Under the pieces are notes generated by a model. It saw only the letters and a program-made list of their open reading frames with translations. It was not told the origin of the DNA and did not search any database. Source: Natrinema versiforme (GTDB lineage: Archaea > Halobacteriota > Halobacteria > Halobacteriales > Natrialbaceae). From it: a DNA stretch of 64,000 nt. Location of the stretch: NCBI RefSeq assembly GCF_005576615.1, contig NZ_CP040330.1, positions 3,410,001 through 3,474,000 on the forward strand. Reading direction: 5' to 3'. The translations under genes were made by a program, and so were the position numbers. Numbering within the stretch: position 1 is the first letter of the stretch; every line of letters begins with the position of its first letter. This document shows, one piece after another, positions 20,818-52,077 of this stretch.

Positions 20818-20877
20818 CCACCTTTTGTCTCGGCCGACGCTGACGCGTCGCCCTCGCAAAATCTGGACCAAAAGGCC
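20818..20877 (-). repeat. Dispersed element, copy 1 (ACCTTTTG...CAAAATCT-GGACCAAAAG)
   Basis: 60-bp unit downstream of the first thiolase gene. One end reads CCACCTTTTGTCTCGG, the other CGCAAAATCTGGACCAAAAG. Related copies are at 20929-20988, 48302-48364 and 51833-51899. Outward of it (about 20793-20811) is a decayed third copy of the thiolase gene end. Confidence 0.7.
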
Positions 20878-20889
20878 TAGACGACCCGT

Positions 20890-20922
20890 CTAGTTGACGG
20901 TAAATTCGATCGCTGCACCCTG
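20890..20922 (-). repeat. Duplicated 3' end of the thiolase gene, including a stop codon
   Basis: On the minus strand this 33-bp stretch encodes [10 protein letters not shown] followed by a stop, matching the true gene end at 21002-21034 ([10 protein letters not shown], stop) with 6 mismatches. It is separated from the gene by element copy 2. Confidence 0.75.
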
Positions 20923-20928
20923 CCACGT

Positions 20929-20988
20929 CCACCTTTTGTCTCGGTCGTCGCTTGCGCTCCTCCCTCGCAAAATCTGGACCAAAAAGCC
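20929..20988 (-). repeat. Dispersed element, copy 2
   Basis: Same ends as copy 1 (CCACCTTTTGTCTCGG and CTCGCAAAATCTGGACCAAAA) with a different 15-20 bp middle. Read in the direction of the thiolase gene it starts GGCTTTTTGGTC just after the stop codon, so it may also act as the gene's T-rich terminator. Confidence 0.75.
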
Positions 20989-21001: not shown

Positions 21002-22138
21002 TTAGGCGACGGTAAACTCGATAGCCGCACCCTGCCCGTAGCCGACGCACATCGTCGAGAGCCCGAGGCCGCCGCCCCGGCGCTGTAGTTCGTGGATCAG
21101 CGTCACAGGGAGGCGAGCGCCGGAGGCCCCCAGCGGGTGGCCGATGGCGATCGCGCCGCCGTTGACGTTGAACGTCTCGTCGTCGAAGCCGAGTTCGTCC
21201 CGGCAGTAGATCGTCTGGCTGGCGAAGGCCTCGTTGAGTTCCACGAGGTCGTAGTCGTCGGCGTCGCGGCCGTTTCGCTCCCAGATGCCCCGCACCGCCG
21301 GCACCGGGCCGATCCCCATCACCGTTGGATCGACGCCCGCGACGTTGTGATCCTCGATTTCGGCCATGACCTCGAGGTCCCGCTCGTCGGCGAATTCTCG
21401 GCTCGTGATCAGGACTCCTGCAGCGCCGTCGGAGACCTGCGAGGCGTTGGCCGCGGTGACGGTGCCGTCTTCCTCAAAGGCGGGCGGGAGGCCGGCAATC
21501 TTCTCCGCGGTCGTCCCGGGACGGAGTCCCTCGTCCTCGGTGATCGTGCCCTCGGCCGTGTCGATGGGGACGATCTCGTCGTCGAATTTGCCCGCCTCGG
21601 TGGCCTCGCAGGCGCGTTGCTGGCTTCGGGCCCCGTACTCGTCTTGGGCCTCGCGGGAGATGTCGTACTCGCGGGCGACCGTCTCGGCGGTCTGGCCCAT
21701 CGCGAGCCCGGCCGCGTCGTACTGCTCGGCGATGCCCGCGTAGGAGTCGATCCCTTTTCGGCGCTCGTTGCGAGACATGTTCTCGACGCCGCCGGCGACG
21801 ATGACCTCGCGCTGGCCCGCTCGAACGGCGTCGCTGGCGCTCATGATCGCCTCCGCCGAGGAGGCACAGAGCCGATCGATGGTGGTGCCGGGCACGCTTT
21901 CGCCCAGCTCCGACAGGAGGGCGATCACCCGCGCGATGTTGTTGCTCTGCTTGTTGACCTGCTTGGCACAGCCCCACCGGATGTCGTCGACGGCCTCGCC
22001 CGAGAGGCCGGTCCGCTCGAGCATCGCGTCGACGAGCGGGACCGAAAGCTCCTCGCTGCCGGTGTCGGCGAAGACGCCGCCGTGTTTCCCCTGCGGAGTC
22101 CGGACTGCCTGCACGATAACTGGCTGCCGATCGCTCAT
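21002..22138 (-). CDS. Thiolase (acetyl-CoA C-acyltransferase)
   Basis: 378 residues. Catalytic residues are visible: nucleophilic Cys91 in [12 protein letters not shown], His334 in [18 protein letters not shown] and Cys364 in CVGYGQGAA. It cleaves 3-ketoacyl-CoA to acetyl-CoA plus a shortened acyl-CoA, or runs in the condensation direction. It is a close paralogue of the thiolase at 50681-51817 (same length, same catalytic positions). It is convergent with the acyl-CoA dehydrogenase upstream on the plus strand. The 3' end is duplicated downstream together with a short repeat element. Confidence 0.95.
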
Positions 22139-47827: not shown

Positions 47828-48169
47828 ATGAGCGACGACGACGGCATTCAACGCGCGAGCGACGTCGGTTCCAGCGACGCGCCGCCGGTCGAGGAGAAAC
47901 CGTACAAGATCATCTTCGAGGCCAACAAGTGCTTCGGCGCGGGCAAGTGCGCCGAGGTCAGCGCCAACTGGGAGATGTCCATCGCCTCGGGCATGGCCAA
48001 ACCCAACGAGTACTTCTTCGGTGAGGAGGACCTCGAGCACAACGTCCGCGCCGCGGAGATCTGTCCCGCGAAGAAAGACGAGGGCTGTATCCACGTGGTC
48101 GACCGCCGGACCGACGAGGAGATCGCACCGGACCCCCACGGCGACGGCACGCTGAGCGTCGACTGGTAG
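47828..48169 (+). CDS. Single-cluster ferredoxin
   Basis: 113 residues. Four Cys occur in EANKCFGAGKCAEVSANWEM and AAEICPAKKDEGCIHVVD, the pattern of a one-cluster (3Fe-4S or 4Fe-4S) ferredoxin of the FixX/P450-partner kind, different from the 2Fe-2S ferredoxin that is the main haloarchaeal one. The sequence is acidic with an unstructured N-terminus of about 25 residues. The start is ATG 47828; a longer upstream open frame overlaps the SDR gene and is not coding. Redox partner unknown. Confidence 0.85.
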   Translation: MSDDDGIQRASDVGSSDAPPVEEKPYKIIFEANKCFGAGKCAEVSANWEMSIASGMAKPNEYFFGEEDLEHNVRAAEICPAKKDEGCIHVVDRRTDEEIAPDPHGDGTLSVDW

Positions 48170-48204: not shown

Positions 48205-48293
48205 ACACACCGAAACGCACATCCCCACCCTGGAACAACGGTCGAGTGCCTTCTGTGCGAGGGGAGCCAAGCAGGCCAACGGCGGTGGGCTTA
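48205..48293 (+). repeat. 89-bp direct repeat: promoter plus 5' half of tRNA-Leu (truncated copy)
   Basis: Matches 48422-48510 with 5 mismatches. The stretch 48257-48293 reproduces the tRNA-Leu 5' half (GCGAGGGG-GCCAAGCAGGCC) through the first bases of the anticodon loop (CTTA), then diverges. It is a broken tRNA gene, directly followed by a copy of the dispersed element. Confidence 0.8.
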
Positions 48294-48301
48294 TCACGCC
48301 G

Positions 48302-48364
48302 GGACCTTTTGCTGCGTTTCGCTCGCGAGCGCTCGCTCCACTTGCAAAATCTCCACCAAAAGCC
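48302..48364 (+). repeat. Dispersed element, copy at the tRNA locus
   Basis: GGACCTTTTGCTGCG at one end and TTGCAAAATCTCCACCAAAAG at the other with a hairpin-prone GCTCGCGAGCGC middle. Same family as 20818-20877, 20929-20988 and 51833-51899. It lies between the truncated and the intact tRNA copies. Confidence 0.7.
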
Positions 48365-48473
48365 GTCGTCACCCCCGCTGGGGGTTCCTCGGCCCGCTCG
48401 CTCCCGTCGGTCACTCGCGGTACACACCGAAACGCACATCCCCACCCCGGAACAACGATCGATTGCATTCTGT

Positions 48474-48557
48474 GCGAGGGTAGCCAAGCAGGCCAACGGC
48501 GGTGGGCTTAAGACCCGCTCCCGTAGGGGTCCTTGGGTTCAAATCCCAACCCTCGCA
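48474..48557 (+). tRNA. tRNA-Leu (anticodon TAA)
   Basis: 84 nt. Acceptor GCGAGGG pairs with CCCTCGC, discriminator A; D-arm GCCAAGCAGGCCAACGGC; anticodon loop CTTAAGA gives anticodon TAA; a long variable arm (class II) around CCCGTAGGGGTCC; T-arm TTGGGTTCAAATCCCAA. No intron and no encoded CCA (the A is followed by CTC). The upstream 50 bp are duplicated at 48205-48256. Confidence 0.95.
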
Positions 48558-48595
48558 CTCGTCACGAGCACCCGCGAGTGACGAGTGTGAGACGC

Positions 48596-48675
48596 GGGAT
48601 TTGAACGAGAGAAGTCGCAGCCCGGACGTGAGCGAACGCGAACGTCCCGGAACGTCTTCGCGTTGTTCAAATCCC
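48596..48675. repeat. Hairpin unit built on a tRNA T-arm copy (first)
   Basis: GGGATTTGAAC (48596-48606) pairs with GTTCAAATCCC (48665-48675); an inner GGACGT/ACGTCC stem is also possible. The right arm continues as a copy of the tRNA-Leu 3' end to 48685 (AACCCTCGCA). Confidence 0.65.
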
Positions 48676-48727
48676 AACCCTCGCATGTCGCCGCGAACAC
48701 ACTGCGAGTGACGAGTGTGCAACGCGT

Positions 48728-48800
48728 GACTTGAACCAGACCGAGGTTCTGCGAGCAATGCGAGCAGGTTCTCGAGCGTGGTTCAAATCCCAACCCTGCA
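48728..48800. repeat. Hairpin unit built on a tRNA T-arm copy (second)
   Basis: TTGAACCA (48731-48738) pairs with TGGTTCAA (48779-48786). The right arm again copies the tRNA 3' end (GTTCAAATCCCAACCCTGCA, to 48800). GCGAGTGACGAGTGTG occurs before both units, at 48574 and 48704. Confidence 0.6.
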
Positions 48801-48947
48801 AGCGAGGTCGGCAAGAGCACGCAACTCGAGGGCGGCATAGCTAGCAGATACAGCGCGGTCGAGCGGGGTCAGAACTGCTAGCGCTGCCGTGCAGGAGCGC
48901 GCAGGTACAACCGTTTCACCCGATCGGGTGGTAGTCGACGGCGTTCG

Positions 48948-50680: not shown

Positions 50681-51817
50681 ATGTCACAGACGCCAGTCGT
50701 GGTCGAGGCAGTCCGGACGCCACAGGGGAAAGAAGACGGCGTGTTCGCCGACGTTCGCAGCGAGGACCTCTCGGTGCCGCTGATCGACGAGATTCTGGCC
50801 GAGACCGGCGTCTCCGGCGAGGAGGTCGACGACCTGATGTGGGGCTGTGCCCAACAACGCGGCGAACAGGACAACAACCTCGCCCGCGTCATCGCCCTGC
50901 TCTCGGAGCTCGGCGAGAACGTGCCGGCGACGACGATCAACCGCTGGTGTGCCTCCTCGATGCAATCGGTCATCTCCGCCTCCGACGCCATCGCGGCCGG
51001 CAACCGCGACGCCATCATCGCCGGCGGCGTCGAGAGCATGAGCCGCGTCCCGATGGGCGAAGGTTTCTCGGAGATCCACCCGCGGCTGGCCGAACTCTAC
51101 GACCTCGGCGACCTCCAGATGGGGATGACCGCCGAGAAGGTCGCCGAGGAGCACGGCATCAGCCGCGAAGCTCAAGACGAGTACGCCGCACGGAGCCAGC
51201 AAAACGCCGTCGAGGCCACCGAAGAGGGTCGCTTCGACGACGAGATCGTCCCGATCGAGACCGAGGACGGCACCGTCGAGGAAGACGAGGGCCTCCGCCC
51301 CGGCACGACCCCCGAAAAGCTCGCCGAACTGCCGACCGTCTTCAAGGACGACGGCTCCGTGACACCCGGCAACGCCTCCCAGATCTCCGACGGCGCCTCG
51401 GCCCTGCTGGTCACGAGCGAGGCCTTCGCCGAGGAACACGACCTCGAGATCATGGCCAAAGTCGGCAAGAACAACGTCGCCGGCGTCGATCCGACTGTCA
51501 TGGGCATCGGCCCGGTCCCGGCGACGAAGGGGCTGCTCGAGCGCAACGGGCGCGACATCGACGAGTACGACCTCGTGGAGCTCAACGAGGCCTTCGCGAG
51601 CCAGTCGCTGTACTCCCGGGACGAACTCGGGATCGACCCCGAAATCTTCAACGTCAACGGCGGTGCGATCGCCATCGGCCACCCGCTGGGGGCCTCCGGC
51701 GCTCGCCTCCCCGTGACGCTGATCCACGAACTCCAGAAGCGCGGCGGCGGCCTCGGGCTGGCGACGCTCTGTGTCGGCTTCGGGCAGGGCGCGGCGATTG
51801 AATTCGACGTCAACTGA
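50681..51817 (+). CDS. Thiolase (acetyl-CoA C-acyltransferase), second copy
   Basis: 378 residues with Cys91 (NRWCASSMQSVI), His334 ([18 protein letters not shown]) and Cys364 (CVGFGQGAA), identical spacing to the thiolase at 21002-22138. It differs mainly in the loop around residues 120-150 (MSRVPMGEGFSEIHPRLAE), which shapes substrate preference. It stands away from the other beta-oxidation genes. Its last 33 bp are repeated at 51906-51938 behind a copy of the same dispersed element found behind the first thiolase. Confidence 0.95.
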   Translation: MSQTPVVVEAVRTPQGKEDGVFADVRSEDLSVPLIDEILAETGVSGEEVDDLMWGCAQQRGEQDNNLARVIALLSELGENVPATTINRWCASSMQSVISASDAIAAGNRDAIIAGGVESMSRVPMGEGFSEIHPRLAELYDLGDLQMGMTAEKVAEEHGISREAQDEYAARSQQNAVEATEEGRFDDEIVPIETEDGTVEEDEGLRPGTTPEKLAELPTVFKDDGSVTPGNASQISDGASALLVTSEAFAEEHDLEIMAKVGKNNVAGVDPTVMGIGPVPATKGLLERNGRDIDEYDLVELNEAFASQSLYSRDELGIDPEIFNVNGGAIAIGHPLGASGARLPVTLIHELQKRGGGLGLATLCVGFGQGAAIEFDVN

Positions 51818-51832
51818 GACGGGTACGCTAGA

Positions 51833-51899
51833 CCTTTTGGTCCAGATTTTGCGAGGCCGACCCGAGTGAAGCGAGCAGGTCGGCCGAGACAAAAGGTGG
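51833..51899 (+). repeat. Dispersed element, copy behind the second thiolase
   Basis: Starts 16 bp after the stop: ACCTTTTGGTCCAGATTTTGCG, with a palindromic middle (GCCGACC...GGTCGGC), ending CCGAGACAAAAGGTGG. Orientation relative to the gene equals that at the first thiolase. Confidence 0.75.
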
Positions 51900-51905
51900 T
51901 CGCGT

Positions 51906-51938
51906 CAGGGCGCGGCGATCGAGTTCGACGTCAACTGA
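51906..51938 (+). repeat. Duplicated 3' end of the second thiolase gene with stop codon
   Basis: 33 bp encoding QGAAIEFDVN and a stop, matching the true gene end at 51785-51817 with 2 mismatches. A degenerate further element (GCCTTTTTGGTC...CCGAGACGAGAGGTG) follows at about 51952-51990. Confidence 0.8.
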
Positions 51939-52077
51939 GACGGTTGCGCTAGCCTTTTTGGTCTTTTCGCGAACCGGCCGAGACGAGAGGTGAGCGGCGA
52001 GAGACGATACTCGAGTGTGGCCGAGACTGAACTGCTCGAGGTATTTGCAGGGGCGAAAAATGGGCTGGGAAAGCGGC

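What the first reader, a model, noticed from the sequence alone, without database searches (positions are those of the whole stretch)
48205..48510. The same element separates a broken and an intact tRNA-Leu copy
An 89-bp direct repeat (94% identical) holds the promoter and 5' half of tRNA-Leu; the first copy breaks in the anticodon loop and is followed by the element (48302-48364), then the intact gene. Thus a third locus also has the element between duplicated gene pieces. Tail-end (thiolase) and head-end (tRNA) duplications both occur, so the element is linked to duplication, not to one gene family.
Basis: seen in the sequence. Interest (0 to 1): 0.65.

Follow-up and report, generated by a model that had tools for sequence, protein, structure and literature searches.

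The report
Hairpin repeat between duplicated gene ends
In salt-loving archaea a short non-coding hairpin repeat sits between a cut-off spare copy of a gene's end and the intact gene, at the same cut point in many species, which suggests small units that add a fresh gene end when they insert.

Summary
An 89-bp repeat (94%) carries the promoter and 5' half of tRNA-Leu(UAA). The same junction lies beside tRNA-Leu(UAA) in 10 of 125 family genomes, five genera. E is a hairpin-forming repeat essentially confined to the haloarchaeal order. In this genome (Natrinema by relatedness) one core subtype lies between duplicated gene ends at 8 of 11 loci, while the main subtype shows no flanking duplication (0 of 25) and usually follows a stop codon. 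So the link to duplication is real but limited to one subtype. Break points are fixed per gene: thiolase in 46 of 392 genomes by pattern (23 genera, at least one false), IleRS in 18 of 29 congeners. The cut-off copy always touches E's left end (8 of 8 gene families). Sister species carry clean empty sites. The two gene-end copies differ mostly at third codon positions. Best reading: small 'E + gene end' units that add a working gene end and displace the old one, architecturally like prophage e14 in icd but without a recombinase, then inherited, homogenised and lost. How they first form is unknown.

The parts
48205..48293 (+). S1: truncated copy (promoter region + first 37 nt of tRNA-Leu), ends inside the anticodon
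   Evidence: 94% to 48422-48510; sequence
48294..48303 (+). linker TCACGCCGGG between the break point and the ACCTTTT of E; ACGCCGGG part conserved at this locus in 10 genomes of 5 genera
48304..48421 (+). element E (left arm ACCTTTTGCTGCG, right arm/core GCAAAATCTCCACCAAAAGC at 48344-48363, then two further hairpin modules)
48422..48510 (+). S2: second repeat copy, continuous with the intact tRNA gene
48474..48558 (+). intact tRNA-Leu(UAA)
   Evidence: RF00005
20794..20811 (+). outermost truncated (decayed) thiolase-1 tail copy, antisense to the gene
20820..20875 (+). E copy 1 at thiolase-1
20876..20922 (+). second truncated thiolase-1 tail copy
20931..20986 (+). E copy 2 at thiolase-1; intact thiolase gene 21002-22138 (-) follows
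51833..51897 (-). E copy at thiolase-2 (gene 50681-51817 +)
51906..51963 (-). truncated thiolase-2 tail copy, preceded by an E right-end remnant
   Evidence: 90% to 51785-51842

Best explanation
E is a lineage-specific, hairpin-forming interspersed repeat of haloarchaea. At a limited set of genes (tRNA-Leu(UAA) 5' end; 3' ends of thiolase, IleRS, PurH, ArgF, an SDR and others) the insertion unit is E together with one working copy of the gene end. The unit sits at a fixed point X inside the gene. The gene keeps an intact end, and the other copy of that end survives as a truncated repeat on E's left side. Shown: the S1-E-S2 anatomy, constant X, one orientation, clean empty sites in sister species, third-position bias of S1/S2 differences. 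Inferred: that the unit is gained as a whole by recombination between related genomes, that copies are kept alike by gene conversion, and that recombination between the repeats removes the unit without a trace. The event that first joined E to X at each gene, and the enzyme if any, are not identified.
For: Flanking repeats at 8 of 11 loci of one core subtype, 0 of 25 of the main subtype. Constant junctions: tRNA-Leu 10 of 125 genomes; thiolase 46 of 392 by pattern, 29 of 30 fetched loci genuine; IleRS 18 of 29. Same orientation at 8 of 8 gene families. Empty sites: G008 aligns over 254 bp with S1 plus outer flank of G018, and G011 with that of G015. S1/S2 differences: 99 of 127 at third codon positions, 28 at positions 1-2, against half expected if S1 were neutral. 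Stem arms covary between loci. Decayed double unit at the same tRNA locus in G267.
Against: No recombinase, circle or mobile carrier was found. The window's thiolase-1 unit is absent at the exact junction from its nearest named orthologues, and its similarity to thiolase-2 units would also fit ectopic copying between paralogues. S1 shares lineage-specific residues with S2 of the same genome, so S1 is not simply a foreign tail; homogenisation must be added to the model. The S1/S2 counts are not independent between related genomes.
Confidence: 0.5

Rival explanations
1. Long target-site duplication: E is a non-autonomous transposon whose transposase makes 30-100 bp target duplications, and only insertions near gene ends survive because the duplication restores the gene.
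For: S1-E-S2 is the form of a target-site duplication; S1 is continuous with the sister species' flank. Long variable target duplications are recalled for IS1549/IS1634 (from memory, not read here).
Against: Random insertion predicts both orientations; 8 of 8 gene families show one. 0 of 25 main-subtype copies have a duplication. X is the same in 23 genera at thiolase. Homology between S1 and S2 at the outer IleRS copies ends at the stop codon by inspection, and differences are mostly third-position.
Confidence: 0.15
2. Tandem duplication: E was already next to the gene and an unequal event with end points at E's left end and X duplicated the E + gene-end segment; upstream E copies then decayed.
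For: Tandem arrays with further E remnants upstream of S1 at several loci: L080/L095, L129, L132, L137, G000 IleRS with three tails.
Against: At the window tRNA and in G018/G015 IleRS the flank outside S1 is the ordinary empty-site flank with no E, so an outer E must have been lost precisely. Does not explain why X is always joined to E's left end in unrelated genes.
Confidence: 0.2
3. E is a 3'-end processing or transcription-termination hairpin kept by selection, and the gene-end repeats are by-products of repeated recombination at such sites.
For: 20 of 26 distinct main-type copies start within 25 nt after the stop of an open frame of 100 codons or more, against 6.8% of random positions (one locus counted once). 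T tracts on both strands (sequence).
Against: The terminator scan finds none at the tRNA locus. E after Pan2 is present in only 13 of 29 congeners. No expression data.
Confidence: 0.1
4. The chimeric promoter + half-tRNA + E is itself a functional small RNA gene.
For: The half copy differs from the gene at 2 of 200 sites against 41 of 507 in the promoter stretch; below the neutral half-rate, p 0.012.
Against: Present in only 10 of 125 genomes; interrupted by an insertion in G204 and decayed in G267; no unusual folding (RNA z -0.95).
Confidence: 0.05

Closest known systems
Integrative elements in protein-gene 3' ends, e.g. prophage e14 in icd of E. coli
   Same: Insertion brings a working, partly recoded gene end and leaves the old end displaced. 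[quoted passage not shown]
   Different: The insert here is a non-coding element of roughly 60-230 bp with no recombinase, the same E occurs at unrelated genes, and units form short tandem arrays.
REP/BIME-type palindromic repeats (PMC3733652, abstract and passages read)
   Same: Many short, intergenic, hairpin-forming copies; no dedicated enzyme known for one class.
   Different: Larger with variable arms; no search with the GTAG or CGTC tags was made; duplicated gene ends are not part of the REP definition in the passages read.
PATEs, MITEs and SMRs of Haloquadratum (PMC3119063, passages read)
   Same: Transposase-free short repeats in a haloarchaeon; repeat-mediated precise deletion described there would remove E here.
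   Different: PATEs and SMRs make no target duplications; MITEs share ends with transposons; no E-like sequence was identified in that text.

Membership tests
MITE with long target duplication | direct repeats flank the element | tested here: met
   8 of 11 loci of one subtype, 0 of 25 of the other
MITE with long target duplication | either orientation relative to the target | tested here: not met
   8 of 8 gene families show one orientation
MITE with long target duplication | terminal inverted repeats shared with a transposon | not tested
   no search for transposons with E ends was made
integrative element of the e14/icd kind | insert restores the gene end; displaced copy remains | tested here: met
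integrative element of the e14/icd kind | own recombinase, autonomous or mobilised | tested here: inconclusive
   E is too short to encode one; none in phage records and 2 of 72,556 plasmid records carry E-like DNA; supply in trans not tested
REP/BIME repeats | short intergenic palindromes in many copies | tested here: met
   31 core hits in the genome, 28 on one contig; stem covariation
REP/BIME repeats | GTAG or CGTC tag and RAYT-type partner | not tested
   tags and RAYT genes were not searched
Rfam RNA families | match to a curated model over E | tested here: not met
   10 loci: tRNA only, plus one sub-threshold Guanidine-II hit elsewhere in L016
split or intron-containing tRNA | gene broken at canonical 37/38 with separate 3' half in use | tested here: not met
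   break after gene position 37, within the anticodon, and an intact gene is adjacent

The most novel reading that the evidence does not exclude
Haloarchaea carry a class of minimal gene-end cassettes: a hairpin repeat plus a recoded copy of a housekeeping gene's end (or of a tRNA promoter and 5' half), inserted at one fixed point per gene, moving between related genomes through the gene end's own homology and without a dedicated recombinase, so that essential genes swap their ends while keeping the old one as a fossil.
Probability: 0.3. Interest if true: 0.85.

Novelty: new variant of a known kind. Interest (0 to 1): 0.6.

Why it matters
If true, ends of essential genes, including a tRNA promoter and 5' half, can be replaced by tiny non-coding-plus-tail units whose sites are fixed over an archaeal order. 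That would give a testable case of gene-end exchange without a phage or integrase, explain orphan gene-end fragments in haloarchaeal intergenic DNA, and provide natural direct repeats for measuring gene conversion in polyploid archaea (polyploidy recalled).

Tried and rejected
Terminal hairpin made by the linker and the end of S1: folds exist, but permuting linkers among 8 loci gives p 0.21; set aside. Unusual folding of E: DNA z 0.23, half-tRNA+E RNA z -0.95; not significant. Viral carrier: a loose core pattern matched 120 or more viral stretches and was too weak; the stricter pattern matched 2 contigs, neither E by inspection (G+C 0.36 and 0.50). Phage records: none. Plasmids: 2 of 72,556, not followed. 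First flank test started 80 bases after the core and so missed the thiolases; redone, where the outer thiolase-1 copy (L117) is still not significant alone (9 of 10 E copies at the 8 loci pass). Twelve of the 22 genomes matched are unrelated sequence and were dropped. L140 is a false match. First IleRS count (16) used too tight a motif and was corrected to 18. In one search the outer copy of L176 runs into other sequence and supplies 7 of the 18 amino-acid changes; the test holds with and without it. Pfam and NCBIfam name no family for the upstream ORF 47828-48166; 'ferredoxin-like' is my own label. Papers: searches gave no description of this repeat or of E between duplicated gene ends; subscription papers are mostly not held, so absence from print is not shown.

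Full report
What was checked. E is longer than stated: it fills 48304-48421, after a 10-nt linker, up to the first base of the second repeat copy; other genomes align to it over nearly that whole length.

One family, two faces. A core pattern finds 31 places in the genome, 28 on the main contig, against 2 forward and 2 reverse for the backwards control; a few on other contigs look unrelated. The main type (L002-L026) reads, just after a stop codon, CGAAATTTTGC - hairpin - GCAAAATTTCGATCAAAAGCACTCC - further hairpins. A second core pattern gives 13 places at 11 loci. Eight of these 11 loci are S1-E-S2; of the other three, one is also in the main-type set, one follows a stop codon and one looks unrelated. 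None of the 25 main-type loci has a flanking repeat above background. So E alone does not imply duplication. L016 and the arms in other families bridge the two types. The outer stem pairs change together (G-C 9, C-G 9, A-T 2 at one position; C-G 15, G-C 6 at the next, among 24 arm types); the finder asked for at least 2 of 5 pairs, which favours pairing.

Where E occurs. E-like DNA is in 180 of 293 genomes of the order. The core is in 21 of 53 genomes of the order and 3 of 241 genomes of the phylum outside it, these with one hit each (split counted by me from its table). Rfam has no family over E.

tRNA-Leu(UAA). The junction GGGCTTA-NN-ACGCCGG-GACC occurs in 10 of 125 family genomes, in five genera by the search's labels, always beside the intact gene. 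Within the genus it is in 3 of 29 genomes, in three separate parts of the tree (in 27 of the 29 the tRNA locus itself was read, the other two rest on the pattern search). Empty sites such as G025 keep the same spacer upstream of the promoter. In G267 two decayed half-tRNA+E units lie between the upstream ORF and the intact tRNA. G003 and G199 keep what looks like a decayed E without the half (by inspection). E at this locus resembles E at the same locus in other genera more than other E of the same genome (by inspection), which points to common descent or exchange at the locus.

Thiolase. A pattern joining E's left end to the codons QGAA of the thiolase tail matches 46 of 392 genomes, 23 of 95 genera, 7 families; 9 genomes have a control hit by my count. 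Of 30 fetched loci 29 are S1-E-S2 with the same break. Among 21 haloarchaeal loci fetched by the window's first thiolase, the exact junction is in one, a second thiolase of N. thermotolerans; L235 and L237 look like diverged cases. Thus the window's thiolase-1 unit is probably a local gain, perhaps copied from a thiolase-2-like locus (inference).

IleRS and Pan2. IleRS carries S1-E-S2 in 18 of 29 congeners with one junction; E follows Pan2 without duplication in 13 of 29. Each needs 5 changes on a 2851-column tree. Sister pairs give clean empty sites: G008's tail and flank align with S1 and its outer flank in G018 over 254 bp (score 339, against 47 for the sequence after S2), likewise G011 with G015 (271 against 96). 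So one E+end unit is the difference.

What the copies say. At 8 of 8 gene families the truncated copy touches E's left end; the chance of one orientation throughout is 0.008 (2 x 0.5^8). In G000 the repeat is 32-97 nt and ends 5-9 nt before E's ACCTTTT at 8 of the 9 significant copies, the ninth aligning to 0. S1 and S2 differ at 28 first or second positions and 99 third positions over 19 IleRS and 32 thiolase copies; if S1 drifted freely about half would be expected at positions 1-2 (p 9e-11, related genomes not independent). In PurH, by reading the printed sequence, serine is TCT in one copy and AGC in the other. S1 also follows lineage-specific residues of S2. Both copies therefore look like recently working gene ends kept alike, not like an old dead duplicate. 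For tRNA-Leu the half differs at 2 of 200 sites and the promoter stretch at 41 of 507, but some halves are broken.

How it most likely works. The best fit is an inserted unit of E plus a working gene end. Architecturally this is what e14 does in icd (PMC2973815, passages), where loss of the prophage swaps ten synonymous and two other changes. Here the insert is tiny and lacks a recombinase. Homologous exchange could carry the unit between relatives and remove it; repeat-mediated precise deletion is described in Haloquadratum (PMC3119063, passages). The first joining of E to X is unexplained. Long target duplication and tandem duplication remain possible; orientation, constant X and third-position divergence count against the first, precise outer flanks against the second.

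Gene names. IleRS, ArgF, PurH, SDR, a PINA-like ATPase, Pan2 and a weak radical-SAM hit are from NCBIfam and Pfam; thiolase and acyl-CoA dehydrogenase from Pfam.

Literature. Nine answered searches (listed under tried and rejected) gave no description of this repeat; I read passages of PMC3119063, PMC3402447, PMC3733652 and PMC2973815 only.

Noticed in passing
48537-48557, 48665-48685, 48781-48801: The tRNA 3' end GTTCAAATCCCAACCCTCGCA is repeated downstream of the gene with about 100-bp spacers that contain an inverted GATTTGAAC; similar arrays are visible downstream of tRNA genes in other genomes (L066, L072, L095, L102, L109). The same tRNA gene thus has truncated copies on both sides, with different spacers.
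   Followed up: partly
L062, L066, L070, L072, L082 (about position 1500): In other genera E starts a few bases after the 3' end of tRNA genes.
   Followed up: no
L298 7098-7511: A 137-aa ORF without a Pfam match lies between two decayed half-tRNA+E units in G267.
   Followed up: partly
L022, L023, L016 and tRNA-locus E of G004, G008, G156: E arms often carry a recurring inserted sub-hairpin (CACGGGTTTCACCCGTTCGT...GCGGCG-CGCCGC) that turns up in different arms and loci.
   Followed up: no
L028 and L190/L195: Pan2 and its downstream region in G028 match G025 closely although G028's sister on the tree, G020, carries E there: a likely recombination of the locus between species.
   Followed up: no
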